Positions 29,800 to 64,000 of a stretch of 64,000 bases of DNA are shown piece after piece. The first letter of the stretch is position 1, and every line of letters starts with the position of its first letter. A program made the position numbers and the translations under genes. The notes under the pieces are model-generated. The model saw only the letters and a list, made by a program, of their open reading frames with translations. It was not told where the DNA came from and did not search any database. The DNA lies in NCBI GenBank assembly GCA_951812995.1, contig CATOTD010000009.1, positions 1 to 64,000 of the forward strand, given 5' to 3'. This DNA is from an uncultured Gammaproteobacteria bacterium. GTDB taxonomy: Bacteria; Pseudomonadota; Gammaproteobacteria; Eutrophobiales; Eutrophobiaceae.

Positions 29800-29800
29800 G

Positions 29801-38065: not shown

Positions 38066-38067
38066 GC

Positions 38068-39554: not shown

Positions 39555-42500
39555 TTATACCACCGCATAGTGGAAGTCGTTGGCGCTTAGGTCAGCCTTT
39601 AATACACCGGCAATAGCGATATAGTTGTTGGCATCGAAATCGATCGACGCGGCTACCCCAGTTGAGCCCCCAAAATCATAATTACTGATTTTATTCTTGA
39701 GTTTGTTAAAGTCGGTCAAATCAGCAATGGCGGATAAGTCTATTTTATCGATGCCGGGCCTAAAATCGTTTATTAGATCAGGGCCGTCGGTGTTGTCAAA
39801 AACAAAAATATCAACACCCGAACCACCTTCTAATATGTCATTGTCCGCGCCGCCGTCAAGGGTGTCATCACCTATGCCGCCATACAACTCATCATTCCCG
39901 GCACCGCCCTTTAGTGTGTCATTGCCGATGTTACCATGCAAAATATCATTATCGGCACCGCCCCTTAGCTTGTCATCACCTATGTCGCCATACAGCAAAT
40001 CAACCCCGACCCCGCCCCTTAGATCGTCATTGCCGAGGCCGCCATCCAGCAAATCATGCCCATCATCGCCGTTGAGCGTGTCATTCTCGTCATTGCCGTA
40101 GAGCCGGTCGTTTCCATCACCGCCATTGAGCGTGTCATCACCATCGTGGCCATACAAATTGTCATTACCCCCTAGGCCATTGAGCTCGTCATTACCGGCC
40201 CCACCGGCTATAGCGTTGACATCGTCATCGCCAGTCAGTACGTCATCATGGCTGGAGCCGCTAATGTACTCAATGTTGCGCAATACATCACCTTCGGCAT
40301 CGCCGCCTGTCTCTGGCTGATCGTCAGACAGATCAACCCTCACCCCGTGTCGAGATGAATAATAGCTGACCTGATCATCATTGCCATCGCCGCCATCCAG
40401 CGTATCGGCACCAGACAGGCCGCGCAAGAGATTCTTGCCATCATCGCCGGTCAGCACATCATCAAACCAGGAACCGATAATATATTCTATGTTTTGAAGC
40501 GTATCGCCCTCGGCATCGCCGCCCGTGCCTTTACCCGTTGCCAGATTAACCACAACCCCCACTGGCGAGGCGATGTAAGACACCCAGTCAACTCCATCCC
40601 CGCCATTTAACAAGTCGGCATCAGCCCCACCGTAAAGCCGGTCATCCCCCTGATTGCCGAACAACTGATCACGCCCCGCCCCACCATATAAGCGATCATT
40701 GCCACCCTCGCCGTTTAAGGTATCGTCACCATAAGTACCAAACAGTTCATCGGCACCATCTGTACCGTTTATCACATTCGCTGGCAAGGCATAGGTCTCG
40801 ATCAAGGCAATCTCATAATCCCAGGCGCGGCCGGTTGGGTCGGCCAGTCGCAGGCGATACGTGCCATCAACCGGCACGCTAAAGCTGGTTGAGACAAACC
40901 CATCAAACCCATATTTGCTGGCCGCCGCAGCCGGCCCGTTGGGTACTGCATGTAACACAAGCGGCAGCTCGGTCTTACCATCTGGTGCCGTCAGCCGCGC
41001 ATCAAGCCGCTGATAAAGACCGGTGGCGGTATAGTTGGGTAATATATTGCTGGAGGCAATTACCTCTGGCAAGCCATCAGCAGCAGCCGGGGTGAATTTA
41101 TAGCGCAGGGTATAGGTCATACCCGCTTTTAGATTCCTAAGACGCAATACCGCTGTTTCAAAGGATGCCAGATCAAATGACTTCGCCGCGGCCGTCAAGG
41201 CCGGGGTAGTCTCACCGCTAGGCTTGGCGCGGGTGATATGAAACCGGTAAGCCCCGGTTTTATCGCCTGCTCGGCCTGAATCAACAAGCGTTGCCGAGGC
41301 GCGGACATACACCGTCTGCGCTTCGTTTAGGGTAAAAGTAATCGCCGCATCGCGCTTGCCAAGCAACACCGGTGCTGTGGTCAAATAATGATCATCATTG
41401 ATAAAGGTCTGGCCGGTGGCAGGCACATAAATATCCAGGCGCGGGTCGAGGAGATCGGCATTGAGGGCACCAAGTGCTTGCAGGATCAGCTTATAGGTCC
41501 CCGCATCCAGGGCCAGCTTATACCAGTCCACATCAACCGCATCGGCCTTGTCTGGCGTACCAGGCTTTGCATCAATCACGCCATCCATCTGATCCAGTTC
41601 CTGGAACGTCAGCGCCCGCTCGGGGCTTTGCTCAACTGCTGTGCGGCTGTCTGGTAAATCATTTTGCACCGCAACCACAAGCGCATAATCATTTACTGCC
41701 TCTAAAAAGTCGTTTAAGTCGAATGTTTTATAGGTCTTGCCGTTGTTTGTGACCGTATTGGTATTATCAGTCACCAGCAGTTTTTGTAGTTCGTTTATAG
41801 TCAGCCGCCGACCGATTTTTTTCTCAGCCAGTTGTTGGGCCAACACAACCGCGCCGGTAATAATCGGGGCGGCGAAAGAGGTGCCGTTGTTTGTATAAAA
41901 GTCGCCGTTTTGTGAGGCCATGTACAGATCCTCACCTGGGGCGAAAATCACATAGTCATCACGCTGGGTAAAATCGGCCAGATCACCATCTTTACTCAGT
42001 GCGCCGACCGCTATTGTGTTTGGATCAACCGCATAATGAGAGGTTTTTTCCTTTTCAGCGGTTGTCAGACCTTCGGCCGCTTTTACCTTTTTATTATAAT
42101 GGTTGCCAGCACCCGCCACTACCGTCACACCTAACCGTGCCAACACCTGAAACTCATCGACTAATTGAGAGGTGTTTTTATCTGCAAACACATTCTCACG
42201 AATTCTTCCAATGGGGCCAATCGAAAAATTCACCGCCACGATATTTAATACCGCCGCATTTTGTATCACCCAGGCCAGTGCCTTTGCACTATCAGTCGAG
42301 GACGAAGCTCCACTTTTATCACTAACTTTCAAGGAGATAATATTCACATCCGGTGCCAAACCGTCCTGGAACCGGCCCGGGGCTGCTTGCCCAGCGATGA
42401 TGGAGGCAATCGGACCGCCATGGTTGGCTTCGTCTTGAATGTCCTTCTTCCCATCAATTAAATTATGCCCCAACACCAGGCGCGACCCATACAGGCCATG

Positions 42501-45500
42501 GTCGATATCCACGCCGGAGTCTATGATCACAACAGTGTAGCCACCGCCTTTTAAATCCGGAAAATTGCCGCGGGCCTCGGCTAGATTGATCTGATCCTGA
42601 AAATTGTCAGATACCCACAGCGGTTTGGCTATGGCTTGCTGTGCGCTGTCTTGCGTAGCGGCCGAATTGGCGGCACCAGTTTCAGGATCTGGCCTGGGAG
42701 AATAGGAATAGGTGCCGGCTTTACTCTGCCAATGAGCACTCAATAAACCCCTATCGGGCCCGGCCGTAAACCGCCAATTATTTGCATCTGGATCGACCCA
42801 ACTGCTCGCCGGACTTATATTCACCGATGGTTCACGCTGGTCGGTTATCCCGATGGTGATGTCTTTTGTGGCGGTCTGTCCGCTGGCATCCGATACGGTG
42901 ATGGATAAGGAAAACTCGGTCTGTTCCTCATAATCGGGGGTAAGACCGTTTTGGAAGGTGATTTCGCCCGTGCTCGAATCGATGGTAAATAACGTAGCAT
43001 CGTCGCCGCCGAGTGTCCAGGTGAGTGCACCTTGGGCATATTGTGTCTGGCCGGTATAGACGGGGAGGGTTGCGCCATACTGGATACCTTCATTCAGACG
43101 GTCCGCATTAGCAGATGAGCTGATGATAAGTGCCAATGAATCGATGACCGGGAGGGTGACATCTTGTTGCGCCGTCTGTACGCGGTTAGCCCCGCCAGGC
43201 ACCGTCTCGGTCACGGTGGCGACAACGGTGAATTGATAGCTTTTCTTATCGTCATACTCAACGGTGCTATCATGCTTGAACGTCACCCGACCGGCATCGT
43301 CTATGTCAAACAGCCCCGCATCACCCCCGGTCAGGCTGTAGGTCAATACGCCCACATCGCCCGTCGCCTGTGCCGTATAGACGACATCGCCCACATTACT
43401 GGCATCACTGGCCTTATATTCCTTACCATCTTGCAGATCGACTATCACAGGTGGCTGCAACACCGGGGCCTCATCATTGATATCCACCACTGCAACCGTG
43501 ACGCTCTGCTGCGCCAACACCTGGGTGTCAACAACATATTCAATGGTGTAGCGGTAGTTGGTGGTGCCACTTTCATAATCGGGATTCGGGGTTGCAGGGT
43601 CTAATACTTTCCACGTCACCGCCCCTGAAGTTGCATCAATATCAAACAGGCCTGCCTGATCATTGTTATTGGGTTTCAGGCGGAAAACCCCATCATTGGG
43701 GAACGGGAAGTTGCCCTGGCTGATGATACCCATCCCTCGCAACGGGGTGCTTACCTGTGGATTGGTCGCTATGTTGGTATTTTCCATCACGTCAATGCGC
43801 ACGTTGCTATTGGTAAAGCCAGCCGCTTGCCCACCCGGGTTATAGCGGGTCAATTTGGCAGGTTTGCCTGCAATATCAAAATCACCCAAGATCGGGGCAG
43901 TCGTGGTGCCGGCCAACACCGCCAGCACGTGGCTACCATCACTGGTGCCATAGAAGATAATCTGGTTATTGGGCACGTCTATGTCATACCAGACTTCATT
44001 CAAGGTTGTGACCAGCTTGTCCGCCGTGCCGCCCACGCCCCAATCGGTGATCAAATCCGCATTGGCAATGGTGGTGGCGATAGATGACAGCACAAAGACA
44101 TCCCGACCGGCCCCGCCGGTCAAGGTATCACGCACCGCGTCCACCCCACCATCCAGACGGTTAACACCCGAGTCACCGGTCAAATGATCGCGGTAAACAG
44201 AGCCGATGAGGTTTTCAATATTGCTTAACACATCGCCTGCGGCAAAGCCGCCGACATTTTTGCTATTATCGCCCAAGTCAACGGTAACGCCCGTATCGGA
44301 GTCGGTATAACTCACGGTATCCACACCACCCGCGCCGTCAATGGTATTGGCATCACGATTGGAAATAAAGGTCTCGTCGTCCGCTTCCCCCACAACGGAG
44401 CTGGTGTTCGTGTTGTCAACGGTGATGGTATGGGTAGTGGGATCGGAGTCTTTGCCTTCACTATCACGCAGTACCACTTCGAATACGCGATCACCATTAC
44501 TGGCGTTGTCCGCATCGGTGTTGCGATAGCGTAAGGCATGGATAATCGCCTCGACCTCAATGGTCGTTAAGGAGCCGCCGGTCTTGGTCAACGTGATGGT
44601 GGCGTTGGCACTATTCCAGGCAAGATTGAGGTCGCTGATACCGGCGATAGTCACGTTGTTAGCGTTGGTATTGACCGCACCACCGATGGACAGCACGCCC
44701 GTGCCATAGGCTAGTTGCTCGTTGTTACGATCCAGGCCAGTGGTGGTAATGGTGATGCGGGTGATAGTCGCTGGCATTGATAACTCAATGATCTGTATGC
44801 CGGCCTCAAAACTCGGTGCCACGAAACCGTATAGCTTACCTGCGATCACCGCCGTGGTGATGGCGGTGGCAGCAAACAACGCGATGTTGGCATTGTCGGT
44901 AATGGTAGCCACTGCCATGGGCGCATACGGGTTGGATAGTGCAATCATCTGTACCCCGTTATCCTCTTCGGCGGTGACCAATGCGTAGGGCTTACCATCT
45001 ATCACCACCGTGGTGATGGCCACAACCCCATCCAATGCAGTAAATGGGCTACTCGCATCCTGGTTGTTATCGACAATCGCGGCGACCGCCGTTGGATTAT
45101 ACGGGTCGGAGATGTCGATAATCTGTACCCCGTCATCGTCTTTGGCGGCGATCAGCGCGTAGGTCTTGCCATCGATCACCACCGTGGTAATAGCGGTGGC
45201 ACCATCAAGTGTGGTGTAGGGGCTATTGGCATCCTGGTTGTCATCGACAATAACAGCCACGGCTAATGGTGCGCTCGGCGTGGATATATCAATAATCTGC
45301 ACCGCATCATCAGTTTCGGCTGCAATCAGCGCGTAGGTCTTGCCACCGATCACCACCGTGGTAATGTCACTGGCACCAGCCAATGCGGTGAATCGGGCAC
45401 CCTTGCTGATGGCGGCGGTGGCAGTCGGGCTACCTGGGTTACTGATGTCGATAATCTGCACCCCGTCATTAAAGTAGGCGGCGATGAGTGCGTAGGTCTT

Positions 45501-48500
45501 GCCTTTGATCACCACCGTCGTGATGGCGGTGGCACCATCAAGTGCGGTACTTGCCGTATTGGCAATCGATGCGGTGGCCTTGGGATCGGTTGGATCGGTA
45601 ATGTCGATAATCTGTACCCCATCACCAGAACGGGCGGCCACCAAGGCGTAGGTGTTACCGGCAATGACCACCGTGGTGATAGATTGCGGGTCACCGAGTT
45701 TTTCAAAAACCTGCTTGGCACTATCGCTACCTCCATTGTAGATACTGGTTATTTGCAACGGTTTGCCAGGGTCTGTGACATCAAGTATCTGTATGTTGCC
45801 ACTGCCAAAAAAGCCACCGACACTGGCCAGCACGTAGGTCTTGCCATTGATCACCACTGTCGTGATCGCAATCGGGCCGCTGGCAAACCGGCCCAGGTTA
45901 AAGGTGTTGCCAAGGTCATCTTGATCGTTCGCTCTGATGGCGCGGGTCGCAAGTAAGGTGATGGCTTGATGGTCATCGGCACGCACGCCGCTGGACAAGG
46001 CAACACCGGCTTCCAATCTCAAGGTACCGGCGGGCGTGCTGATGGTGCGGCTGGTGGTATCGGCCGCGTTCAAGTCCAGGATGGGTTTGGTGTCAAAATA
46101 GACAAAATCATTGGGGTTTGTTAAATCTGTTTTTTTGACCCCGGTCAGCGTGATGGTATGACCCGGGCTGGTGGTAATGACCGCGTTATTGCCCACATCC
46201 TTGGTTGCAGCCAGTACGGCTTGATGGTTGGTAAAACCAACAATGGCGGACAGATCGATTTTATCCGTGCCGCTTACAAAACCGGTGATGGTGTCTGTAC
46301 CGTGACCAGCGGCAAAGACAAAGGTATTTGTACCTGTACCCCCATCAAGCGTGTCATTGCCCGCACCGCCGATAAGCCGGTCATCGCCCGTACCGCCGAC
46401 GAGCCGATCATCACCTGCACCACCGGTAAGCCGGTCACCACCGCCACGGCCTTCGATGACATTATCCTGATCATCACCGCTTAAGCGGTCGTTATAAGCT
46501 GAGCCGATGATGTTTTCGATATTGTCCAGGACATCGCCTGCGGCAAAGCTACCGGCATTTTGGGTATTATCGCCCAAGTGTACCGTGACCGCAGCCGTGG
46601 CACCGGTATAGTCTATGGTATCGACACCGCCCTTGCCGTCAATAATGTCGGGGGTGTTGCTTGCAACAAAAGACTGGGGGGTGTTATTGCCTGGTTGCGC
46701 GCGGCTATCGACCGTGACGCTATATACCGCCGCCGTGGAGGCCAGCCCGTCAACATCGGTGAGTACGATCGAGAACGTGCGCTCGCCATTGTTGGCGCGA
46801 CCGGCATCGGCATTACGATAACGCAAGACACCGAGTATGACCTCAACCGCGATGGTTGTTAAGTTGCCGCCAGTCTTGGTCAGTGTGATGGTGGCGGTGG
46901 CACTATCCCAGGCAAGATTGAGGCCACTGACACCGGCGATAGTCACGTTGTTAGCGTTGGTATCGGTCGCCTCGCCGATGGACAGGAACTCACCAGCCCC
47001 ACTGCCATAGGCTAGTTGCTCGTTGCTACGATCCAGGCCCGTGGTGGTGATGGTGATGCGGGCGATGGTCGCCGGTAGTAGCTCGATGATCTGTACCCCG
47101 AGATCACCACGAGCGGCGTTAATGCTATAGAGCCGCCCGTCAATTATCGCGGTGGTGGTGGCAAATGCGTCATCAAGCTCGGTGTAGGGGCTATTCATAT
47201 CCTGATTGTCATCGACAATGGCAGCCACGGCTTTGGGTGCGGCAGGATCGCTGATGTCAATTATCTGTACCCCATCATCCCGGCCCGCCACGACCAGGGC
47301 GTAGGTCTTGTCCGCCACAACCACGGTACTGATGTCGCGGGCACCATCAAGTGTGGTGTAGGGGCTATTGTCATCTTTATTGTCATCGACAATAGCGGCT
47401 GTGGCCTTGGGATCATCCGGATCGGAGATGTCGATAATCTGTACCCCATCACTACGGGTCGAGACGACCAGGGCGTAGGTCTTACCGGCAATGACCACCG
47501 TGGTGATGGCGGCGGCACCATTTAGCACGCTGTATCTATTACCATCACTATCTGTGTTGTCATGGGTGATGGCGGTGACGTGTTGCGGGACGGCCGGGGT
47601 CGATATGTCAATAATCTGTATCCCGTTGCTATCGGCGGTCACCAGGGCGTAAGTCGCATCGCCGATGACCACCGTGGTGATGGCGTTTGTGTCAGTCAGG
47701 CTGGTAAATCCATTCACCCCACCGGTAATCGTGGCCGTGAAGGTCGAGCTTGTGGGCGTGGTGATGTCGATAATCTGTACCCCGTTATCATCACGAGCGG
47801 CGATGAGCGCGTAGGTGTTGACACCGATGCCCACCGTGGTGATGGCAACAGCACCGTCCAGTGCGGTACCCGCCGTATCAGAGATCGATGCCGTGGCCTT
47901 GGGATCAGTGGGATCGGTGATCTCAATAATCTGTACCCCGTTATCCTCACGGGCGGCGATGAGCGCGTAGGTCTTGCCGCCGATAACCACCGTGGTCATC
48001 GATCTTGGATCGTCCAATTCATCAAACCTGCCCATGGCACTGTCGGTGCTTTCATCGGCAATGCTTGTCACCTGTCGCGGGTTGTTTGGCGCAGTAACAT
48101 CGATAATCTGCACGCTATCGTCATCGCCGCGCACGGCCACCAGCGCGTAGACTCTGTTGTTAATCACCACGGTAGTAACGGCCGCCGGGTTACTAGATTC
48201 AGCACCCAATTCAAAGGCTTGACCGGTACCATCATCATCACCATCGTTTATGGCTGCGGTGGCAACGGGCGCGAGCGTCTGATGGTCAGCGGCTGTGGCA
48301 TCGGCGGCCAAGGCAATGCCATTGCTAAGCATCGCCGTATTGATAAGACTGCGGGTTGCAGTAAGCGCAAGCGTTGGCTCACTACCATAATAGATAAAAT
48401 CAGTGTTTTTTAAATCTGCTTTTTTGACCCCGGTCAGTGTGATGGTATGACCCACACTGGTGGTGATCACTGCGTTACCACTGCCATCATCAGCCGTTGC

Positions 48501-57500: not shown

Positions 57501-60500
57501 GACACCGTCTGCAAGCGTGATGGTGTTGCTGCCTACAGTGCCCGCCGTCCAGTTGCTGCCGCTGTCTGTTGAGTACGTCCACGCGGCACCCGCTTCAAGA
57601 CCGGTGACCGTGATGGTCGGGTTGTTGCTGATGTTGTCGCTGGTATTGGTGCCTGTGTCGGTAAAGGCGATACCAGGGGGCAAGGCCTCGGTGTCTATGG
57701 TGATGGGGTTGGCATTGCTGCCCACAACTGATTGATTGCCCGCCACATCGGTTTGGCGGACTTGTATGGTATTGGCGCTATAGACACCGTCTGCAAGCGT
57801 GATGGTGTTGCTGCCTACAGTGCCCGCCGTCCAGTTGCTGCCGCTGTCTGTTGAGTACGTCCACGCGGCACCCGCTTCAAGACCCGTGACCGTGATGGTC
57901 GGGTTGTTGCTGATGTTGTCGCTGGTATTGGTGCCTGTGTCGGTAAAGGCGATACCAGGGGGCAAGGCCTCGGTGTCTATGGTGATGGGGTTGGCATTGC
58001 TACCCACAACTGATTGATTACCCGCCACATCGGTCTGGCGGACTTGTATGGTATTGGTGCTATAGGTGCCGTCTGCAAGGGTAATGGTGTTGCTGCCTAC
58101 AGTGCCCGCTATCCAGTTGCTACCGCTGTCTGTTGAGTACCTCCACGCGGCACCCGCTTCAAGACCGGTAACCGTGATGGTCGGGTTGTTGCTGATGTTG
58201 TCGCTGGTATTGGTACCTGTGTCGATAAAGGCGATACCAGGGGGCAAGGCCTCGGTGTCTATGGTGATGGGGTTGGCATTGCTACCCACAACTGATTGAT
58301 TGCCCGCCACATCGGTCTGGCGGACTTGTATGGTATTGGTGCTATAGGTGCCGTCTGCAAGGGTAATGGTGTTGCTGCCTACAGTGCCCGCTATCCAGTT
58401 GCTACCGCTGTCTGTTGAGTACCTCCACGCGGCACCCGCTTCAAGACCGGTGACCGTGATGGTCGGGTTGTTGCTGATGTTGTCGCTGGTATTGGTACCT
58501 GTGTCGATAAAGGCGATACCAGGGGGCAAGGCCTCGGTGTCTATGGTGATGGGGTTGGCATTGCTACCCACAACTGATTGATTGCCCGCCACATCGGTCT
58601 GGCGGACTTGTATGGTATTGGTGCTATAGGTGCCGTCTGCAAGGGTAATGGTGTTGCTGCCTACAGTGCCCGCTATCCAGTTGCTACCGCTGTCTGTTGA
58701 GTACGTCCACGCGGCACCCGCTTCAAGACCGGTAACCGTGATGGTCGGGTTGTTGCTGATGTTGTCGCTGGTATTGGTACCTGTGTCGATAAAGGCGATA
58801 CCAGGGGGCAAGGCCTCGGTGTCTATGGTGATGGGGTTGGCATTGCTACCCACAACTGATTGATTGCCCGCCACATCGGTCTGGCGGACTTGTATGGTAT
58901 TGGTGCTATAGGTGCCGTCTGCAAGGGTAATGGTGTTGCTGCCTACAGTGCCCGCTATCCAGTTGCTACCGCTGTCTGTTGAGTACCTCCACGCGGCACC
59001 CGCTTCAAGACCGGTAACCGTGATGGTCGGGTTGTTGCTGATGTTGTCGCTGGTATTGGTACCTGTGTCGATAAAGGTGATACCAGGGGGCAAGGCCTCG
59101 GTGTCTATGGTGATGGGGTTGGCATTGCTACCCACAACTGATTGATTACCCGCCACATCGGTCTGGCGGACTTGTATGGTATTGGTGCTATAGGTGCCGT
59201 CTGCAAGGGTAATGGTGTTGCTGCCTACAGTGCCCGCTATCCAGTTGCTACCGCTGTCTGTTGAGTACCTCCACGCGGCACCCGCTTCAAGACCGGTAAC
59301 CGTGATGGTCGGGTTGTTGCTGATGTTGTCGCTGGTATTGGTACCTGTGTCGATAAAGGCGATACCAGGGGGCAAGGCCTCGGTGTCTATGGTGATGGGG
59401 TTGGCATTGCTACCCACAACTGATTGATTACCCGCCACATCGGTCTGGCGGACTTGTATGGTATTGGTGCTATAGGTGCCGTCTGCAAGGGTAATGGTGT
59501 TGCTGCCTACAGTGCCCGCTATCCAGTTGCTACCGCTGTCTGTTGAGTACCTCCACGCGGCACCCGCTTCAAGACCGGTAACCGTGATGGTCGGGTTGTT
59601 GCTGATGTTGTCGCTGGTATTGGTACCTGTGTCGATAAAGGTGATACCAGGGGGCAAGGCCTCGGTGTCTATGGTGATGGGGTTGGCATTGCTACCCACA
59701 ACTGATTGATTACCCGCCACATCGGTCTGGCGGACTTGTATGGTATTGGTGCTATAGGTGCCGTCTGCAAGGGTAATGGTGTTGCTGCCTACAGTGCCCG
59801 CTATCCAGTTGCTACCGCTGTCTGTTGAGTACCTCCACGCGGCACCCGCTTCAAGACCGGTAACCGTGATGGTCGGGTTGTTGCTGATGTTGTCGCTGGT
59901 ATTGGTACCTGTGTCGATAAAGGCGATACCAGGGGGCAAGGCCTCGGTGTCTATGGTCAAGGTAAAGGTGGCACTGAGATCGCCAGCCGCGACCACGATA
60001 CTCATGCCCGGGCTTAATTGCACCACGCGGGCGGTTAAGAGTGCATCTCCCTCGGCCAAGGTGGGCAAGGTATATGTCCAGTTGGTGCCGACTACGTTCG
60101 CCGTGCCAAGCAATACGCCGTTGTTGTAAACCTGTACGACTTCATTGGCGTTCAAGCCTGGGTTGATCGTGCCGCTTAAGGTCGGGGTGGTATCGTCCGT
60201 TACCCCGTTGTCGGCCAAGTCATCTGTCTTGCTGCCAACATCGTCTGTGGCCAAGGTAATGGTGGTGCGTGTCGCCAGTGGCAGTACGGAGCCGTCAACC
60301 GTTTTGCCTGCATCAACGGCCACCGCTTGGTAGTTTAAGGTGGCATTGTTACCGGCCGTGTCGGTGATGGTCGCACCTGGGGGTAGCGTGATGCTACCCG
60401 CCTCAATCTCAATGCCATTGCCATCGGTATCGCCGAGTTGGACAACATAACGAAAGACCAAAGTGGTCGAACTAGATAGCACACTCACATAACTGGCCAG

Positions 60501-63500
60501 CTTGGGAGCACCGCCGCCGATGTCTATGCTGACCGTCGGCGTGCCAGTTACCGTGACCGCTTCATTAAAGGTTAGCGTGATGTCTATGGGGTCACCAACT
60601 CGATAGGTGCTACCGTCATGGCGAACTCCATCGGCTATGGGTGGGTTGTTGATGGTCGGCAGACCGGTAATGGCCGGGGCCTCGGTGTCTATGGTGATGG
60701 GGTTGGCATTGCTACCCACAACTGATTGATTGCCCGCCACATCGGTCTGGCGGACTTGTATGGTATTGGTGCTATAGGTGCCGTCTGCAAGGGTAATGGT
60801 GTTGCTGCCTACAGTGCCCGCTATCCAGTTGCTACCGCTGTCTGTTGAGTACGTCCACGCGGCACCCGCTTCAAGACCGGTAACCGTGATGGTCGGGTTG
60901 TTGCTGATGTTGTCGCTGGTATTGGTACCTGTGTCGATAAAGGCGATACCAGGGGGCAAGGCCTCGGTGTCTATGGTGATGGGGTTGGCATTGCTACCCA
61001 CAACTGATTGATTGCCCGCCACATCGGTCTGGCGGACTTGTATGGTATTGGTGCTATAGGTGCCGTCTGCAAGGGTAATGGTGTTGCTGCCTACAGTGCC
61101 CGCTATCCAGTTGCTACCGCTGTCTGTTGAGTACCTCCACGCGGCACCCGCTTCAAGACCGGTAACCGTGATGGTCGGGTTGTTGCTGATGTTGTCGCTG
61201 GTATTGGTACCTGTGTCGATAAAGGTGATACCAGGGGGCAAGGCCTCGGTGTCTATGGTGATGGGGTTGGCATTGCTACCCACAACTGATTGATTACCCG
61301 CCACATCGGTCTGGCGGACTTGTATGGTATTGGTGCTATAGGTGCCGTCTGCAAGGGTAATGGTGTTGCTGCCTACAGTGCCCGCTATCCAGTTGCTACC
61401 GCTGTCTGTTGAGTACCTCCACGCGGCACCCGCTTCAAGACCGGTAACCGTGATGGTCGGGTTGTTGCTGATGTTGTCGCTGGTATTGGTACCTGTGTCG
61501 ATAAAGGTGATACCAGGGGGCAAGGCCTCGGTGTCTATGGTGATGGGGTTGGCATTGCTACCCACAACTGATTGATTACCCGCCACATCGGTCTGGCGGA
61601 CTTGTATGGTATTGGTGCTATAGGTGCCGTCTGCAAGGGTAATGGTGTTGCTGCCTACAGTGCCCGCTATCCAGTTGCTACCGCTGTCTGTTGAGTACCT
61701 CCACGCGGCACCCGCTTCAAGACCGGTAACCGTGATGGTCGGGTTGTTGCTGATGTTGTCGCTGGTATTGGTACCTGTGTCGATAAAGGTGATACCAGGG
61801 GGCAAGGCCTCGGTGTCTATGGTGATGGGGTTGGCATTGCTACCCACAACTGATTGATTACCCGCCACATCGGTCTGGCGGACTTGTATGGTATTGGTGC
61901 TATAGGTGCCGTCTGCAAGGGTAATGGTGTTGCTGCCTACAGTGCCCGCTATCCAGTTGCTACCGCTGTCTGTTGAGTACCTCCACGCGGCACCCGCTTC
62001 AAGACCGGTAACCGTGATGGTCGGGTTGTTGCTGATGTTGTCGCTGGTATTGGTACCTGTGTCGATAAAGGCGATACCAGGGGGCAAGGCCTCGGTGTCT
62101 ATGGTGATGGGGTTGGCATTGCTACCCACAACTGATTGATTGCCCGCCACATCGGTCTGGCGGACTTGTATGGTATTGGTGCTATAGGTGCCGTCTGCAA
62201 GGGTAATGGTGTTGCTGCCTACAGTGCCCGCTATCCAGTTGCTGCCGCTGTCTGTTGAGTACGTCCACGCGGCACCCGCTTCAAGACCGGTGACCGTGAT
62301 GGTCGGGTTGTTGCTGATGTTGTCGCTGGTATTGGTGCCTGTGTCGGTAAAGGCGATACCAGGGGGCAAGGCCTCGGTGTCTATGGTGATGGGGTTGGCA
62401 TTGCTGCCCACAACTGATTGATTGCCCGCCACATCGGTTTGGCGGACTTGTATGGTATTGGCGCTATAGACACCGTCTGCAAGCGTGATGGTGTTGCTGC
62501 CTACAGTGCCCGCCGTCCAGTTGCTGCCGCTGTCTGTTGAGTACGTCCACGCGGCACCCGCTTCAAGACCCGTGACCGTGATGGTCGGGTTGTTGCTGAT
62601 GTTGTCGCTGGTATTGGTGCCTGTGTCGGTAAAGGCGATACCAGGGGGCAAGGCCTCGGTGTCTATGGTGATGGGGTTGGCATTGCTACCCACAACTGAT
62701 TGATTACCCGCCACATCGGTCTGGCGGACTTGTATGGTATTGGTGCTATAGGTGCCGTCTGCAAGGGTAATGGTGTTGCTGCCTACAGTGCCCGCTATCC
62801 AGTTGCTACCGCTGTCTGTTGAGTACCTCCACGCGGCACCCGCTTCAAGACCGGTAACCGTGATGGTCGGGTTGTTGCTGATGTTGTCGCTGGTATTGGT
62901 ACCTGTGTCGATAAAGGCGATACCAGGGGGCAAGGCCTCGGTGTCTATGGTGATGGGGTTGGCATTGCTACCCACAACTGATTGATTGCCCGCCACATCG
63001 GTCTGGCGGACTTGTATGGTATTGGTGCTATAGGTGCCGTCTGCAAGGGTAATGGTGTTGCTGCCTACAGTGCCCGCTATCCAGTTGCTACCGCTGTCTG
63101 TTGAGTACCTCCACGCGGCACCCGCTTCAAGACCGGTAACCGTGATGGTCGGGTTGTTGCTGATGTTGTCGCTGGTATTGGTACCTGTGTCGATAAAGGT
63201 GATACCAGGGGGCAAGGCCTCGGTGTCTATGGTGATGGGGTTGGCATTGCTACCCACAACTGATTGATTACCCGCCACATCGGTCTGGCGGACTTGTATG
63301 GTATTGGTGCTATAGGTGCCGTCTGCAAGGGTAATGGTGTTGCTGCCTACAGTGCCCGCTATCCAGTTGCTACCGCTGTCTGTTGAGTACCTCCACGCGG
63401 CACCCGCTTCAAGACCGGTAACCGTGATGGTCGGGTTGTTGCTGATGTTGTCGCTGGTATTGGTACCTGTGTCGATAAAGGTGATACCAGGGGGCAAGGC

Positions 63501-64000
63501 CTCGGTGTCTATGGTGATGGGGTTGGCATTGCTACCCACAACTGATTGATTACCCGCCACATCGGTCTGGCGGACTTGTATGGTATTGGTGCTATAGGTG
63601 CCGTCTGCAAGGGTAATGGTGTTGCTGCCTACAGTGCCCGCTATCCAGTTGCTACCGCTGTCTGTTGAGTACCTCCACGCGGCACCCGCTTCAAGACCGG
63701 TAACCGTGATGGTCGGGTTGTTGCTGATGTTGTCGCTGGTATTGGTACCTGTGTCGATAAAGGTGATACCAGGGGGCAAGGCCTCGGTGTCTATGGTGAT
63801 GGGGTTGGCATTGCTACCCACAACTGATTGATTACCCGCCACATCGGTCTGGCGGACTTGTATGGTATTGGTGCTATAGGTGCCGTCTGCAAGGGTAATG
63901 GTGTTGCTGCCTACAGTGCCCGCTATCCAGTTGCTACCGCTGTCTGTTGAGTACCTCCACGCGGCACCCGCTTCAAGACCGGTAACCGTGATGGTCGGGT
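39555..64000 (-). CDS. giant secreted RTX protein with Ig-like repeats and a subtilisin-like protease domain (partial; start outside the window)
   Basis: The frame is open from the window edge to the TAA at 39555, at least 8,148 codons. Domains in order: 94-residue Ig-like repeats in three blocks (64000-49051) with two 246-residue spacers; a related Ig-like segment (~49050-48700); module 1 (48670-~46490) and module 2 (~46340-44100), each a secretion-signal-like/RTX part plus LVIVD-type propeller repeats (x-G-V-Q-I-I-D-I-x-x-P); cadherin-like domains (~43800-42760); a peptidase S8 domain (~42560-41790); a pre-peptidase C-terminal-like domain (~41560-41210); then many GGxGxDxLx RTX nonapeptides (~40780-39830). 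The S8 domain has Asp in VVIIDSGVDIDHG, His in EANHGGPIASIIAG and Ser in NGTSFAAPIITG. The C-terminus (IDLSAI...ADLSANDFHYAVV) resembles type I secretion signals. It is probably a cell-surface or released adhesin with protease activity. No type I transporter genes are in the window. Confidence 0.9.
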   Translation of the reverse strand, partial: PTITVTGLEAGAAWRYSTDSGSNWIAGTVGSNTITLADGTYSTNTIQVRQTDVAGNQSVVGSNANPITIDTEALPPGITFIDTGTNTSDNISNNPTITVTGLEAGAAWRYSTDSGSNWIAGTVGSNTITLADGTYSTNTIQVRQTDVAGNQSVVGSNANPITIDTEALPPGITFIDTGTNTSDNISNNPTITVTGLEAGAAWRYSTDSGSNWIAGTVGSNTITLADGTYSTNTIQVRQTDVAGNQSVVGSNANPITIDTEALPPGITFIDTGTNTSDNISNNPTITVTGLEAGAAWRYSTDSGSNWIAGTVGSNTITLADGTYSTNTIQVRQTDVAGNQSVVGSNANPITIDTEALPPGIAFIDTGTNTSDNISNNPTITVTGLEAGAAWRYSTDSGSNWIAGTVGSNTITLADGTYSTNTIQVRQTDVAGNQSVVGSNANPITIDTEALPPGIAFTDTGTNTSDNISNNPTITVTGLEAGAAWTYSTDSGSNWTAGTVGSNTITLADGVYSANTIQVRQTDVAGNQSVVGSNANPITIDTEALPPGIAFTDTGTNTSDNISNNPTITVTGLEAGAAWTYSTDSGSNWIAGTVGSNTITLADGTYSTNTIQVRQTDVAGNQSVVGSNANPITIDTEALPPGIAFIDTGTNTSDNISNNPTITVTGLEAGAAWRYSTDSGSNWIAGTVGSNTITLADGTYSTNTIQVRQTDVAGNQSVVGSNANPITIDTEALPPGITFIDTGTNTSDNISNNPTITVTGLEAGAAWRYSTDSGSNWIAGTVGSNTITLADGTYSTNTIQVRQTDVAGNQSVVGSNANPITIDTEALPPGITFIDTGTNTSDNISNNPTITVTGLEAGAAWRYSTDSGSNWIAGTVGSNTITLADGTYSTNTIQVRQTDVAGNQSVVGSNANPITIDTEALPPGITFIDTGTNTSDNISNNPTITVTGLEAGAAWRYSTDSGSNWIAGTVGSNTITLADGTYSTNTIQVRQTDVAGNQSVVGSNANPITIDTEALPPGIAFIDTGTNTSDNISNNPTITVTGLEAGAAWTYSTDSGSNWIAGTVGSNTITLADGTYSTNTIQVRQTDVAGNQSVVGSNANPITIDTEAPAITGLPTINNPPIADGVRHDGSTYRVGDPIDITLTFNEAVTVTGTPTVSIDIGGGAPKLASYVSVLSSSTTLVFRYVVQLGDTDGNGIEIEAGSITLPPGATITDTAGNNATLNYQAVAVDAGKTVDGSVLPLATRTTITLATDDVGSKTDDLADNGVTDDTTPTLSGTINPGLNANEVVQVYNNGVLLGTANVVGTNWTYTLPTLAEGDALLTARVVQLSPGMSIVVAAGDLSATFTLTIDTEALPPGIAFIDTGTNTSDNISNNPTITVTGLEAGAAWRYSTDSGSNWIAGTVGSNTITLADGTYSTNTIQVRQTDVAGNQSVVGSNANPITIDTEALPPGITFIDTGTNTSDNISNNPTITVTGLEAGAAWRYSTDSGSNWIAGTVGSNTITLADGTYSTNTIQVRQTDVAGNQSVVGSNANPITIDTEALPPGIAFIDTGTNTSDNISNNPTITVTGLEAGAAWRYSTDSGSNWIAGTVGSNTITLADGTYSTNTIQVRQTDVAGNQSVVGSNANPITIDTEALPPGITFIDTGTNTSDNISNNPTITVTGLEAGAAWRYSTDSGSNWIAGTVGSNTITLADGTYSTNTIQVRQTDVAGNQSVVGSNANPITIDTEALPPGIAFIDTGTNTSDNISNNPTITVTGLEAGAAWTYSTDSGSNWIAGTVGSNTITLADGTYSTNTIQVRQTDVAGNQSVVGSNANPITIDTEALPPGIAFIDTGTNTSDNISNNPTITVTGLEAGAAWRYSTDSGSNWIAGTVGSNTITLADGTYSTNTIQVRQTDVAGNQSVVGSNANPITIDTEALPPGIAFIDTGTNTSDNISNNPTITVTGLEAGAAWRYSTDSGSNWIAGTVGSNTITLADGTYSTNTIQVRQTDVAGNQSVVGSNANPITIDTEALPPGIAFTDTGTNTSDNISNNPTITVTGLEAGAAWTYSTDSGSNWTAGTVGSNTITLADGVYSANTIQVRQTDVAGNQSVVGSNANPITIDTEALPPGIAFTDTGTNTSDNISNNPTITVTGLEAGAAWTYSTDSGSNWTAGTVGSNTITLADGVYSANTIQVRQTDVAGNQSVVGSNANPITIDTEALPPGIAFIDTGTNTSDNISNNPTITVTGLEAGAAWRYSTDSGSNWIAGTVGSNTITLADGTYSTNTIQVRQTDVAGNQSVVGSNANPITIDTEALPPGITFIDTGTNTSDNISNNPTITVTGLEAGAAWRYSTDSGSNWIAGTVGSNTITLADGTYSTNTIQVRQTDVAGNQSVVGSNANPITIDTEALPPGIAFIDTGTNTSDNISNNPTITVTGLEAGAAWRYSTDSGSNWIAGTVGSNTITLADGTYSTNTIQVRQTDVAGNQSVVGSNANPITIDTEALPPGIAFIDTGTNTSDNISNNPTITVTGLEAGAAWRYSTDSGSNWIAGTVGSNTITLADGTYSTNTIQVRQTDVAGNQSVVGSNANPITIDTEALPPGIAFTDTGTNTSDNISNNPTITVTGLEAGAAWTYSTDSGSNWTAGTVGSNTITLADGVYSANTIQVRQTDVAGNQSVVGSNANPITIDTEALPPGIAFTDTGTNTSDNISNNPTITVTGLEAGAAWTYSTDSGSNWIAGTVGSNTITLADGTYSTNTIQVRQTDVAGNQSVVGSNANPITIDTEALPPGIAFIDTGTNTSDNISNNPTITVTGLEAGAAWRYSTDSGSNWIAGTVGSNTITLADGTYSTNTIQVRQTDVAGNQSVVGSNANPITIDTEALPPGITFIDTGTNTSDNISNNPTITVTGLEAGAAWRYSTDSGSNWIAGTVGSNTITLADGTYSTNTIQVRQTDVAGNQSVVGSNANPITIDTEALPPGIAFIDTGTNTSDNISNNPTITVTGLEAGAAWRYSTDSGSNWIAGTVGSNTITLADGTYSTNTIQVRQTDVAGNQSVVGSNANPITIDTEALPPGITFIDTGTNTSDNISNNPTITVTGLEAGAAWRYSTDSGSNWIAGTVGSNTITLADGTYSTNTIQVRQTDVAGNQSVVGSNANPITIDTEALPPGITFIDTGTNTSDNISNNPTITVTGLEAGAAWRYSTDSGSNWIAGTVGSNTITLADGTYSTNTIQVRQTDVAGNQSVVGSNANPITIDTEAPAITGLPTINNPPIADGVRHDGSTYRVGDPIDITLTFNEAVTVTGTPTVSIDIGGGAPKLASYVSVLSSSTTLVFRYVVQLGDTDGNGIEIEAGSITLPLGTTITDTAGNNATLNYQAVAVDAGKTVDGSVLPLATRTTITLATDDVGSKTDALTNNGVTDDTTPTLSGTINPGLNANEVVQVYNNGVLLGTANVVGTNWTYTLPALADGDAVLTARVVQLSPGTSIVVAAGDLSATFTLTIDTEALPPGIAFTDTGTNTSDNISNNPTITVTGLEAGAAWRYSTDSGSNWIAGTVGSNTITLADGVYSANTIQVRQTDVAGNQSVVGSNANPITIDTEALPPGITFIDTGTNTSDNISNNPTITVTGLAAGAAWRYSTDSGSNWIAGTVGSNTITLADGTYSTNTIQVRQTDVAGNQSVVGSNANPITIDTEALPPGITFIDTGTNTSDNISNNPTITVTGLEAGAAWRYSTDSGSNWIAGTVGSNTITLADGVYSANTIQVRQTDVAGNQSVVGSNANPITIDTEALPPGIAFTDTGTNTSDNISNNPTITVTGLEAGAAWRYSTDSGSNWIAGTVGSNTITLADGVYSANTIQVRQTDVAGNQSVVGSNANPITIDTEALPPGITFIDTGTNTSDNISNNPTITVTGLEAGAAWTYSTDSGSNWTAGTVGSNTITLADGVYSANTIQVRQTDVAGNQSVVGSNANPITIDTEALPPGIAFTDTGTNTSDNISNNPTITVTGLEAGAAWTYSTDSGSNWTAGTVGSNTITLADGVYSANTIQVRQTDVAGNQSVVGSNANPITIDTEALPPGIAFIDTGTNTSDNISNNPTITVTGLEAGAAWRYSTDSGSNWIAGTVGSNTITLADGTYSTNTIQVRQTDVAGNQSVVGSNANPITIDTEALPPGITFIDTGTNTSDNISNNPTITVTGLEAGAAWRYSTDSGSNWIAGTVGSNTITLADGTYSTNTIQVRQTDVAGNQSVVGSNANPITIDTEALPPGIAFIDTGTNTSDNISNNPTITVTGLEAGAAWRYSTDSGSNWIAGTVGSNTITLADGTYSTNTIQVRQTDVAGNQSVVGSNANPITIDTEALPPGIAFIDTGTNTSDNISNNPTITVTGLEAGAAWRYSTDSGSNWIAGTVGSNTITLADGTYSTNTIQVRQTDVAGNQSVVGSNANPITIDTEALPPGIAFTDTGTNTSDNISNNPTITVTGLEAGAAWTYSTDSGSNWTAGTVGSNTITLADGVYSANTIQVRQTDVAGNQSVVGSNANPITIDTEALPPGIAFTDTGTNTSDNISNNPTITVTGLEAGAAWTYSTDSGSNWIAGTVGSNTITLADGTYSTNTIQVRQTDVAGNQSVVGSNANPITIDTEALPPGIAFIDTGTNTSDNISNNPTITVTGLEAGAAWRYSTDSGSNWIAGTVGSNTITLADGTYSTNTIQVRQTDVAGNQSVVGSNANPITIDTEALPPGITFIDTGTNTSDNISNNPTITVTGLEAGAAWRYSTDSGSNWIAGTVGSNTITLADGTYSTNTIQVRQTDVAGNQSVVGSNANPITIDTEALPPGIAFTDTGTNTSDNISNNPTITVTGLEAGAAWRYSTDSGSNWIAGTVGSNTITLADGTYSTNTIQVRQTDVAGNQSVVGSNANPITIDTEALPPGIAFIDTGTNTSDNISNNPTITVTGLEAGAAWRYSTDSGSNWTAGTVGSNTITLADGVYSANTIQVRQTDVAGNQSVVGSNANPITIDTEAPTIQSTTVNSAGPDNTYVTGNHIDITVTYDEAVVITGTPTIEVEVGGNTRTASYVAGLSTATTLVFRYTVANDDTDTDGIVVNANIALSGGTIQDAAGHDAATNSAAIPVSNTHRVNTRDNDAANGRLVSDANDNVLTGGAGADIFVFTAGHGADTITSFVSGTDKIDLSAIVGFTSITAVRDATADDGSGNAVITTSVGHTITLTGVKKADLKNTDFIYYGSEPTLALTATRSLINTAMLSNGIALAADATAADHQTLAPVATAAINDGDDDGTGQAFELGAESSNPAAVTTVVINNRVYALVAVRGDDDSVQIIDVTAPNNPRQVTSIADESTDSAMGRFDELDDPRSMTTVVIGGKTYALIAAREDNGVQIIEITDPTDPKATASISDTAGTALDGAVAITTVGIGVNTYALIAARDDNGVQIIDITTPTSSTFTATITGGVNGFTSLTDTNAITTVVIGDATYALVTADSNGIQIIDISTPAVPQHVTAITHDNTDSDGNRYSVLNGAAAITTVVIAGKTYALVVSTRSDGVQIIDISDPDDPKATAAIVDDNKDDNSPYTTLDGARDISTVVVADKTYALVVAGRDDGVQIIDISDPAAPKAVAAIVDDNQDMNSPYTELDDAFATTTAIIDGRLYSINAARGDLGVQIIELLPATIARITITTTGLDRSNEQLAYGSGAGEFLSIGEATDTNANNVTIAGVSGLNLAWDSATATITLTKTGGNLTTIAVEVILGVLRYRNADAGRANNGERTFSIVLTDVDGLASTAAVYSVTVDSRAQPGNNTPQSFVASNTPDIIDGKGGVDTIDYTGATAAVTVHLGDNTQNAGSFAAGDVLDNIENIIGSAYNDRLSGDDQDNVIEGRGGGDRLTGGAGDDRLVGGTGDDRLIGGAGNDTLDGGTGTNTFVFAAGHGTDTITGFVSGTDKIDLSAIVGFTNHQAVLAATKDVGNNAVITTSPGHTITLTGVKKTDLTNPNDFVYFDTKPILDLNAADTTSRTISTPAGTLRLEAGVALSSGVRADDHQAITLLATRAIRANDQDDLGNTFNLGRFASGPIAITTVVINGKTYVLASVGGFFGSGNIQILDVTDPGKPLQITSIYNGGSDSAKQVFEKLGDPQSITTVVIAGNTYALVAARSGDGVQIIDITDPTDPKATASIANTASTALDGATAITTVVIKGKTYALIAAYFNDGVQIIDISNPGSPTATAAISKGARFTALAGASDITTVVIGGKTYALIAAETDDAVQIIDISTPSAPLAVAVIVDDNQDANSPYTTLDGATAITTVVIDGKTYALIAAKDDDGVQIIDISDPYNPTAVAAIVDNNQDASSPFTALDGVVAITTVVIDGKPYALVTAEEDNGVQMIALSNPYAPMAVATITDNANIALFAATAITTAVIAGKLYGFVAPSFEAGIQIIELSMPATITRITITTTGLDRNNEQLAYGTGVLSIGGAVNTNANNVTIAGISDLNLAWNSANATITLTKTGGSLTTIEVEAIIHALRYRNTDADNASNGDRVFEVVLRDSEGKDSDPTTHTITVDNTNTSSVVGEADDETFISNRDANTIDGAGGVDTVSYTDSDTGVTVDLGDNSKNVGGFAAGDVLSNIENLIGSVYRDHLTGDSGVNRLDGGVDAVRDTLTGGAGRDVFVLSSIATTIANADLITDWGVGGTADKLVTTLNEVWYDIDVPNNQIIFYGTSDGSHVLAVLAGTTTAPILGDFDIAGKPAKLTRYNPGGQAAGFTNSNVRIDVMENTNIATNPQVSTPLRGMGIISQGNFPFPNDGVFRLKPNNNDQAGLFDIDATSGAVTWKVLDPATPNPDYESGTTNYRYTIEYVVDTQVLAQQSVTVAVVDINDEAPVLQPPVIVDLQDGKEYKASDASNVGDVVYTAQATGDVGVLTYSLTGGDAGLFDIDDAGRVTFKHDSTVEYDDKKSYQFTVVATVTETVPGGANRVQTAQQDVTLPVIDSLALIISSSANADRLNEGIQYGATLPVYTGQTQYAQGALTWTLGGDDATLFTIDSSTGEITFQNGLTPDYEEQTEFSLSITVSDASGQTATKDITIGITDQREPSVNISPASSWVDPDANNWRFTAGPDRGLLSAHWQSKAGTYSYSPRPDPETGAANSAATQDSAQQAIAKPLWVSDNFQDQINLAEARGNFPDLKGGGYTVVIIDSGVDIDHGLYGSRLVLGHNLIDGKKDIQDEANHGGPIASIIAGQAAPGRFQDGLAPDVNIISLKVSDKSGASSSTDSAKALAWVIQNAAVLNIVAVNFSIGPIGRIRENVFADKNTSQLVDEFQVLARLGVTVVAGAGNHYNKKVKAAEGLTTAEKEKTSHYAVDPNTIAVGALSKDGDLADFTQRDDYVIFAPGEDLYMASQNGDFYTNNGTSFAAPIITGAVVLAQQLAEKKIGRRLTINELQKLLVTDNTNTVTNNGKTYKTFDLNDFLEAVNDYALVVAVQNDLPDSRTAVEQSPERALTFQELDQMDGVIDAKPGTPDKADAVDVDWYKLALDAGTYKLILQALGALNADLLDPRLDIYVPATGQTFINDDHYLTTAPVLLGKRDAAITFTLNEAQTVYVRASATLVDSGRAGDKTGAYRFHITRAKPSGETTPALTAAAKSFDLASFETAVLRLRNLKAGMTYTLRYKFTPAAADGLPEVIASSNILPNYTATGLYQRLDARLTAPDGKTELPLVLHAVPNGPAAAASKYGFDGFVSTSFSVPVDGTYRLRLADPTGRAWDYEIALIETYALPANVINGTDGADELFGTYGDDTLNGEGGNDRLYGGAGRDQLFGNQGDDRLYGGADADLLNGGDGVDWVSYIASPVGVVVNLATGKGTGGDAEGDTLQNIEYIIGSWFDDVLTGDDGKNLLRGLSGADTLDGGDGNDDQVSYYSSRHGVRVDLSDDQPETGGDAEGDVLRNIEYISGSSHDDVLTGDDDVNAIAGGAGNDELNGLGGNDNLYGHDGDDTLNGGDGNDRLYGNDENDTLNGDDGHDLLDGGLGNDDLRGGVGVDLLYGDIGDDKLRGGADNDILHGNIGNDTLKGGAGNDELYGGIGDDTLDGGADNDILEGGSGVDIFVFDNTDGPDLINDFRPGIDKIDLSAIADLTDFNKLKNKISNYDFGGSTGVAASIDFDANNYIAIAGVLKADLSANDFHYAVV
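49051..53562 (-). repeat. tandem repeat block 1: 16 copies of a 282-bp unit
   Basis: Exactly 16 units of 282 bp encode 94-residue Ig-like repeats (key residues: N-P-I-T-I-D-T-E-A-L-P-P-G-I, then D-N-I-S-N-N-P-T-I-T-V-T-G-L). Units differ at a few fixed positions: I/T in F-(I/T)-D-T-G, T/I in G-I-(T/A)-F, R/T in A-W-(R/T)-Y, T/V in D-G-(T/V)-Y-S. Near-identity at DNA level, including synonymous sites, points to recent expansion or gene conversion. Confidence 0.95.
53563..54300 (-). repeat. 738-bp spacer between repeat blocks, copy 1
   Basis: This encodes 246 residues with two other Ig-like units (GLPTINNPPIADGVRHDG..., then TTITLATDDVGSKTDALTNN...). It is almost identical to the spacer at 59941-60678; differences include ALTNN against DLADN and LGTTI against PGATI. 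Confidence 0.93.
54301..59940 (-). repeat. tandem repeat block 2: 20 copies of the 282-bp unit
   Basis: Exactly 20 units of 282 bp lie between the two spacers. The order of unit variants over the ten units with starts near 55150-57690 repeats the order of ten units in block 1 (near 49615-52155), evidence for a multi-unit duplication. Confidence 0.95.
59941..60678 (-). repeat. 738-bp spacer between repeat blocks, copy 2
   Basis: Second copy of the 246-residue spacer, exactly 6,378 bp from the first (20 x 282 + 738), giving the array a higher-order period. Confidence 0.93.
60679..64000 (-). repeat. tandem repeat block 3: 11 full copies plus a partial one, continuing out of the window
   Basis: Eleven complete 282-bp units and about 0.8 of a twelfth reach the window edge. 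The array, and so the protein, continues beyond 64000. Confidence 0.95.

What the first reader, a model, noticed from the sequence alone, without database searches (positions are those of the whole stretch)
39555..64000. A more than 8,100-residue RTX protein that carries its own subtilisin-like protease
Seen: one uninterrupted frame with 47+ Ig-like repeats, LVIVD-type propellers, cadherin-like domains, a complete Asp-His-Ser peptidase S8 domain, and a C-terminal RTX/type I secretion region. Known: giant type I-secreted adhesins usually carry Ig-like repeats and RTX but rarely a subtilase near the C-terminus. Inference: the protease could cut the adhesin itself or its neighbours after calcium-induced folding, releasing the long stalk or anchoring it. 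This architecture may be undescribed.
Basis: partly seen in the sequence, partly recalled or inferred. Interest (0 to 1): 0.75.

Follow-up and report, generated by a model that had tools for sequence, protein, structure and literature searches.

The report
Giant RTX proteins carrying a protease
One bacterial genome devotes about six percent of its DNA to a family of enormous, apparently secreted proteins with the same N-terminal domain, and three of them, including this one, carry an intact-looking subtilisin protease near the C-terminal end, which makes them candidates for proteases displayed far from the cell on long stalks.

Summary
The frame is real and longer than reported: G000:C9:39555-71261, minus strand, 10,568 residues, 1.08 MDa; the window holds the last 8,147. 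Confirmed: Ig-like repeats (94-aa unit, 54 copies), two LVIVD propellers with seven blade motifs each, cadherin-like domains, a subtilisin domain (Z 34.6; Asp, His, Asn, Ser present) and C-terminal RTX repeats; a PPC-like domain is below cut-off. It is not a singleton: eight genes here (1,240 to 16,169 aa; 6.4% of the genome) share its N-terminus, and three hold the genome's only S8 matches. None of 52 other genomes of the family has a match to this N-terminus. A type I secretion operon follows one sibling. Each member has exactly two cysteines, both N-terminal; no LapG was found. Among the three proteases active-face loops vary most (45 of 74 positions against 14 of 56 in other loops). Best reading: a cell-anchored, tip-displayed protease with outside substrates; anchoring, activity and targets are inferred. 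Self-cleavage is untested. S8 with RTX repeats is known in other proteins (PMC2605481).

The parts
39555..64000 (-). C-terminal 8,147 residues of gene A (whole gene G000:C9:39555-71261, 10,568 aa)
60678..64000 (-). 94-aa Ig-like (Big_13) tandem array, first block in the window, runs out of the window
54300..59957 (-). 94-aa Ig-like tandem array, second block (20.1 copies)
49050..53579 (-). 94-aa Ig-like tandem array, third block (16.1 copies)
48357..48659 (-). internal RTX segment 1 of 3, with a KIDLSA motif as at the end of the protein
   Evidence: motifs; boundaries by eye
46977..48344 (-). LVIVD beta-propeller 1, seven blade motifs
   Evidence: model pLDDT 68.3, pTM 0.73
46062..46709 (-). 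internal RTX segment 2 of 3, with a KIDLSA motif
   Evidence: boundaries by eye
44667..46049 (-). LVIVD beta-propeller 2, seven blade motifs, 57% identical to propeller 1
44007..44369 (-). internal RTX segment 3 of 3, no KIDLSA motif
   Evidence: Pfam 22.2 bits, just below the cut-off of 23; boundaries by eye
42831..43814 (-). cadherin-like domains just before the protease
   Evidence: Pfam Cadherin over cut-off; boundaries by eye
41691..42602 (-). subtilisin (peptidase S8) domain; codons of Asp 42519-42521, His 42420-42422, oxyanion Asn 42102-42104, Ser 41877-41879
40764..41690 (-). tail after the protease: one PPC-type domain (E 6.3e-4, under Pfam's cut-off) and a second beta-rich stretch of low confidence
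39558..40796 (-). C-terminal RTX calcium-binding repeats and presumed uncleaved type I secretion signal
   Evidence: repeats; signal inferred
38231..39541 (-). neighbour: UDP-glucose dehydrogenase family gene (not part of the system)
36846..38003 (-). IS transposase (DUF772 type); near-copies (96-98% in DNA) lie beside siblings B and C

Best explanation
Gene A makes a type I-secreted RTX protein that leaves the cell C-terminus first, is calcium-folded outside, and stays anchored by its N-terminal domain in or under the outer-membrane pore. The C-terminal block (cadherin-like, subtilisin, PPC-like, RTX) therefore sits at the far tip of a stalk of Ig-like domains roughly 0.3 micrometre long and cuts proteins of other cells, a host or a matrix. 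The three S8 siblings (A, B, C) are the same tip on stalks of different length and make-up, with different substrate preference. Shown: the sequence, domains, predicted S8 fold and catalytic residues, the shared ends, a T1SS operon after sibling D, the restricted distribution, the active-face variation. Inferred: export by that operon, C-terminus-first order and anchoring (from known RTX adhesins), the anchor being a disulphide-closed knob formed by the only two cysteines, proteolytic activity, outside substrates.
For: The S8 domain model matches subtilisins (Z 33-35 over 260-280 residues, rmsd 2.1-2.9; pLDDT 80-98 over most of the core), with Asp, His, Asn, Ser in A, B and C. Eight genes share the N-terminus (H by its first part); B, C, D, E, F, G and H also share one type of C-terminal end. 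T1SS genes (TolC-type, LapB/LssB-type ABC, HlyD-type) follow D directly, with E and H next upstream. Exactly two cysteines per protein, within residues 66-75, in 8 of 8 members, H read in its two parts. N-terminal Gly/Ala-rich hydrophobic stretch and weak BapA-prefix match (18.5-19.6 bits, cut-off 35). Active-face loops variable at 45 of 74 positions against 14 of 56 in other loops (Fisher p 7.7e-5) and 23 of 111 in helices and strands; dN/dS there 0.44, 0.47 and 1.17 against 0.18-0.34 in the rest. C-terminus-first export and N-terminal retention: SiiE review (PMC6272769, passages); a proposed 0.6 micrometre rod of about 120 Ig-like repeats: MpAFP (PMC4083281, passages).
Against: No experiment. 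A is not beside a T1SS, and its own last 70 residues differ from the siblings' shared end. The N-terminal domain does not reach the BapA cut-offs and has no solved relative by sequence. No I9-type pro-domain reached threshold, so how the enzyme is kept silent or matures is unknown. dN/dS over the S8 domain as a whole is 0.28-0.55, and the 1.17 was not tested against 1. Which loops face the substrate was assigned by me from strand ends of the model and recalled subtilisin topology; two of these loops are modelled at low confidence. Gene conversion blurs comparisons: the tail of A and C has dS 0.09 while their S8 has 0.63.
Confidence: 0.5

Rival explanations
1. Self-release: the tip protease cuts its own stalk or the N-terminal linkers of its siblings, replacing the missing LapG, so that the proteins are shed.
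For: No LapG family hit in the genome, with Caulobacter as a working control; no [TAP]AAG motif with a DP ahead of it in the first 260 residues of the eight members (consensus from PMC13090378, passage). The three S8 genes share a genome with five siblings that show no S8 match.
Against: A tip protease is far from the N-terminus of its own molecule. Varied active-face loops do not fit one shared cleavage site. B is 2,351 aa and still carries S8, so releasing a long stalk is not its only use.
Confidence: 0.2
2. Free exoenzyme: the whole protein is released and works as a secreted protease whose repeats bind matrix or polymers.
For: Many RTX proteases are fully released (recalled). PPC and cadherin-like domains also occur in secreted enzymes (recalled).
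Against: The conserved N-terminal domain with the sole two cysteines in 8 of 8 members, and its Gly/Ala-rich hydrophobic stretch, look like an anchor.
Confidence: 0.15
3. The S8 domain is a binding or structural module without activity.
For: No activity data; no I9 pro-domain reached threshold.
Against: All four catalytic residues are kept in three copies, B and C being 78% and 76% identical to A over the S8 core; dN/dS 0.18-0.34 outside the active-face loops.
Confidence: 0.07
4. Assembly artefact: repeat number or the joining of N- and C-terminal parts is wrong.
For: The longest exact repeat in gene A is 2,809 nt, more than a short read spans; the read type is not known to me.
Against: No stop in 31.7 kb; repeats are not all identical (18 distinct DNA units among 54); siblings B and C, without this array, have the same N-terminus and protease block.
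Confidence: 0.05

Closest known systems
Subtilisins with hemolysin-type repeats (P. putida NP_747027.1; Photorhabdus NP_927988.1; PMC2605481, passages)
   Same: S8 protease joined to RTX-type repeats
   Different: listed there with a P-domain; no Ig, propeller or cadherin arrays in those rows
Subt-PPC-PPC proteases (4 proteins in PMC2605481, passage)
   Same: S8 followed by PPC-type domain (one seen here, below cut-off)
   Different: no RTX or stalk named in that row
Giant adhesin-like proteins of a Ca. Thiodiazotropha symbiont (PMC11171427, passages)
   Same: giant proteins with RTX-like, cadherin-like, Ig domains and a peptidase near type I secretion genes
   Different: peptidase named there is M36 metallopeptidase, not S8; choice-of-anchor K, no LVIVD named in the passages
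Giant Ig-repeat RTX adhesins: MpAFP/MpIBP, SiiE, LapA
   Same: long arrays of Ig-like or similar repeats, type I secretion, calcium (LapA details recalled)
   Different: the distal part is a binding region in MpAFP (passages); [quoted passage not shown] LapA uses a LapG-cut retention module (PMC13090378, passages), not found here
BapA-type biofilm proteins
   Same: prefix-like N-terminus followed by Ig repeats
   Different: prefix match below curated cut-offs
CdrA cysteine hook (two-partner secretion)
   Same: cysteines thought to hold a large adhesin in its pore (PMC11898600, one passage)
   Different: CdrA's hook is at the C-terminus and in another secretion type; here a proposal only

Membership tests
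Peptidase S8 (subtilisin) | Asp-His-Ser with oxyanion Asn in family motifs | tested here: met
   all four in A, B, C; Pfam over cut-off
Peptidase S8 (subtilisin) | subtilisin fold | tested here: met
   predicted model, (Z 34.6, rmsd 2.7, 279 aligned)
Peptidase S8 (subtilisin) | proteolytic activity | not testable with these tools
   needs the protein
RTX proteins | Gly/Asp-rich nonapeptide calcium-binding repeats | tested here: met
   HemolysinCabind 7.4e-50
RTX proteins | export by a type I system | tested here: inconclusive
   two LssB-type ABC genes in the genome, one in an operon after sibling D, none beside A
Giant Ig-repeat RTX adhesins | tandem Ig-like extender repeats | tested here: met
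Giant Ig-repeat RTX adhesins | adhesion to a target | not testable with these tools
   needs the protein or cells
LapA-type adhesins | LapG protease and DP...[TAP]AAG cleavage site in the retention module | tested here: not met
   no LapG hit; no [TAP]AAG with DP ahead in residues 1-260
BapA-type adhesins | BapA prefix-like domain over cut-off | tested here: not met
   Pfam 14.0-15.7 bits of 27, NCBIfam 18.5-19.6 of 35
BapA-type adhesins | surface retention and biofilm role | not testable with these tools
   needs cells

The most novel reading that the evidence does not exclude
A lineage-restricted, horizontally gained arsenal of interchangeable giant fibres, served by one type I exporter and held by a new kind of anchor (a two-cysteine disulphide knob at the N-terminus in place of the LapG-type retention module), in which stalks and tips are swapped by recombination and the protease tips diversify in substrate preference.
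Probability: 0.25. Interest if true: 0.8.

Novelty: new variant of a known kind. Interest (0 to 1): 0.6.

Why it matters
If right, bacteria can hold a protease at the end of a stalk hundreds of nanometres long, and one lineage devotes about 6% of its genome to such proteins. It links two questions that are usually apart: how giant type I-secreted proteins are held without the Lap system, and how they act on targets beyond binding. The shared ends with changing middles also give a natural series for testing how stalk and tip work together.

Tried and rejected
Simple insertion of A at an otherwise conserved site: not supported. The Sel1 and MltF-type genes on one side lie near each other in 9 of 9 congeners whose stretch I fetched (of 11 congeners, G008 and G010 had no high match and were not fetched); by the coordinates they are next to each other in 6, with a gap of 1.6-3.6 kb in G001, G003 and G004. 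On the other side, 8 congeners that I compared share a set of other genes, and the UDP-glucose dehydrogenase gene was not matched in the 9 stretches. So a rearrangement is as likely as an insertion.

Close relatives by name: genome-contig scans with A alone and with A1 confirmed none (192 and 74 pattern matches); viral contigs with A1 none of 58. No RuBisCO match in the host genome, so no support for a thioautotroph.

Positive selection on the protease: not claimed; dN/dS is 0.28-0.55 over the whole domain.

S8 in giant frames as a rarity: in a phylum sample 138 of 299 genomes, the host included, had S8 at E 1e-12 or better; among the match rows printed the longest open frame I saw was 1,669 aa, but the rows are the best-scoring part only, the host's own three were not among them, and more were not listed. 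So this is a hint, not a count.

Plasmid searches with the N-terminus (1 record, 31% identity over 47%), the protease region (54 records, all under 60% identity, none covering 80%), the IS and malate synthase did not name the host.

Full report
What is there. The frame reported at 39555-64000 is real, and the window cuts it. In the host genome (G000, 3.05 Mb, 17 contigs, completeness 99.14%, contamination 1.53%) it runs from C9:71261 to C9:39555 on the minus strand with an ATG start and no stop inside: 10,568 residues, 1.08 MDa, pI 4.05. The window holds the last 8,147 residues. I call it gene A.

Anatomy of A, N to C. Residues 1-190: a conserved domain with a weak BapA-prefix match (18.5 bits, NCBIfam cut-off 35), then a Gly/Ala-rich hydrophobic stretch near 195-222 and a Big_6-type domain (by eye). 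Then mixed Ig-like domains (Big_13 over cut-off). From about residue 1,590 to 7,400 the 94-aa Ig-like unit: 54 copies starting TIDTEALPP, 18 distinct DNA versions, pairwise DNA identity 94-100%, broken by three 246-aa inserts, two of them in the window. Big_13 hits two tandem units at 9.7e-10. Then twice: a short RTX segment with a KIDLSA motif as in the end of the protein, followed by an LVIVD propeller with seven blade motifs. The propeller model (pLDDT 68.3, pTM 0.73; two sequences in the alignment) matches beta-propellers, best the LGI1 EPTP domain at TM 0.79 to the target and 0.59 to the model. Then a third RTX segment, cadherin-like domains (over cut-off), the subtilisin domain, a PPC-type domain (below cut-off, E 6.3e-4), a second beta-rich stretch of low confidence, and C-terminal RTX repeats.

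The protease. The alignment for folding had the A region and 24 viral-contig S8 relatives. The S8 core is predicted at 80-98 pLDDT over most of its length, with loops at 54-76; the parts before and after are mostly low. Foldseek and VIA-align 2 list subtilisins and kin at the top (best Z 34.6, rmsd 2.7, 279 aligned). Asp 9581, His 9614, Asn 9720 and Ser 9795 are present and have counterparts in B and C. No I9 pro-domain reached threshold.

A family, not a singleton. The genome has three S8 matches at E 0.001 or better, all in three genes of one kind: A, B (C2:775541-782596, 2,351 aa) and C (C2:797974-809943, 3,989 aa). Their first 470 residues are 77-84% and their S8-to-RTX parts 79-83% identical. 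The middles differ: B and C have cadherin-like arrays (B by Pfam; C by eye and motif only) and no copy of the 94-aa unit or the blade motif. A profile of the N-terminus finds more: D (1,240 aa), E (16,169) and H (463 plus 11,747 in two frames; matched over profile positions 2-225 only) on C14, F (14,730) and G (3,511) on C3, and a broken fragment on C6. A further RTX piece (722 aa) lies at C14:140386. The eight sum to 64,768 aa, 6.4% of the genome. E, F, G and H carry 10, 8, 2 and 13 clusters of the blade motif. B, C, D, E, F, G and H end alike; A ends differently.

Exporter. Directly after D on C14 lie a TolC-type gene (126.7 bits, below that model's 225), an LssB/LapB-type ABC gene (594 bits, below the 693 cut-off) and an HlyD-type gene (273.5, over its 208.7). 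A second LssB-type ABC gene (767 bits, over cut-off) lies on C2, with an HlyD-like gene by eye. That the C14 operon exports A is inference.

Anchor. Each of the eight proteins has exactly two cysteines, at residues 68 and 75 (66 and 71 in D), and none elsewhere, even in 16,169 residues; H is read in its two parts. In type I export the N-terminus leaves last; SiiE is described as secreted starting with its C-terminus and retained within the secretion system, the N-terminal moiety being crucial for retention and release (PMC6272769, passages). A cysteine pair that closes in the periplasm could act as a stopper; CdrA is thought to use a cysteine hook in another secretion type (PMC11898600, one passage). 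This is a proposal. No LapG was found (Caulobacter rings in the control), and no [TAP]AAG motif with a DP ahead lies in the first 260 residues.

Origin. The N-terminal profile matches, at E 0.001, 0 of 52 other genomes of the same family, 11 of them of the same genus (33 of the 53 are at least 90% complete and at most 5% contaminated, and fragmented genomes can lose giant genes). In a class sample 6 of 368 others have partial hits, most of them weak, best in G145 (E 2.2e-31), a 1.45 Mb genome in which an ABC-like and a TolC-like gene, by eye, lie beside one hit. LssB-type ABC genes at E 1e-120 are in 0 of 11 congeners (a strict limit). The full protease region is in none of 57 relatives; 9 of 57 have weak partial hits, and in the class sample 9 of 368 others match part of it at E 1e-10 or better, best 1e-19. 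GC3 of A-G and H's long part is 0.54-0.65 and of the C14 exporter genes 0.55-0.61, against 0.37-0.53 in 11 other genes that I chose from the window and C2; the IS has 0.63. IS copies 96-98% alike in DNA lie near A and beside B and C. Gain from outside followed by growth inside this lineage fits. Contamination is unlikely because the genes lie on four contigs of 179-812 kb, and A, B and C have ordinary genes nearby.

How the proteases differ. Between A, B and C, loops on the face of the active site vary at 45 of 74 positions, other loops at 14 of 56 (p 7.7e-5), helices and strands at 23 of 111. dN/dS on that face is 0.47 (A-B), 0.44 (A-C), 1.17 (B-C), in the rest 0.24, 0.18, 0.34. I assigned faces from strand ends of the model and recalled topology; two active-face loops are modelled poorly. 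Loops are freer to change, but the other loops serve as control. Silent changes show a mosaic: A and C differ at dS 0.09 in the tail and 0.63 in S8, so parts seem homogenised by recombination.

How it most likely works. Secreted C-terminus first, folded by calcium, held by the N-terminus, so that the protease block is at the tip. With about 4.5 nm per Ig-like repeat (45-46 angstrom in two RTX adhesins, PMC7493085, passage) the 54 units alone give about 0.25 micrometre, the whole perhaps 0.3 or more. Targets are likely outside. The propellers and cadherin-like domains may bind them. Which targets is open: a host of this bacterium, other microbes or matrix.

Known and new. S8 with RTX repeats and S8-PPC-PPC are in a 2008 survey (PMC2605481, passages). 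Giant Ig-repeat RTX adhesins are well known (PMC4083281, PMC6272769, PMC7493085, passages). Adhesin-like giants with RTX-like, cadherin-like, Ig and M36 metallopeptidase domains are reported in a Ca. Thiodiazotropha symbiont (PMC11171427, passages), the nearest printed parallel that I saw for a peptidase within a giant adhesin. I found no printed account of the S8 giant form or of eight such genes in one genome (searches; open-licence papers only, no preprints, so the bioRxiv study on giant genes that PMC11171427 cites was not seen). Verdict: a new variant of a known kind, in a striking genome-wide setting.

Noticed in passing
G000:C14:54175-102681 (-), G000:C3:153125-197314 (-): Siblings E (16,169 aa) and F (14,730 aa) are larger than A and hold many modules of LVIVD propeller, RTX repeats and KIDLSA-type ends (10 and 8 blade clusters), as if secreted proteins had been chained end to end.
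   Followed up: partly
G000:C14:102892-139523 (-): Sibling H reads as 463 aa and 11,747 aa in two different frames meeting near 138134: a frame change, real or from assembly.
   Followed up: no
G145:C1:1053979-1058340 (L078:3979-8340) and L077: A 1.45 Mb single-contig genome of another family has an N-terminus of this type before Ig-like repeats, and another hit beside TolC-like and ABC-like genes (by eye).
   Followed up: partly
window 28693-29802, 25677-25843, 36601-38231; L005-L006, L007, L008-L009: Several copies and pieces of one DUF772-type IS, 95-98% alike over the long matches, beside A, B and C and elsewhere.
   Followed up: partly
G000:C2:650447-652528: Second LssB-type type I ABC gene with an HlyD-like gene, near transposase-like pieces (by eye); no large RTX frame seen in the 19 kb fetched.
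   Followed up: no
window 18850-24168: 1,772-aa protein with a PilY1-type propeller after a run of small genes, probably type IV pilus.
   Followed up: no
L079-L158: 80 IMG/VR loci (of 81 confirmed) encode S8 relatives of the domain, 20-53% identity over the best segment.
   Followed up: no
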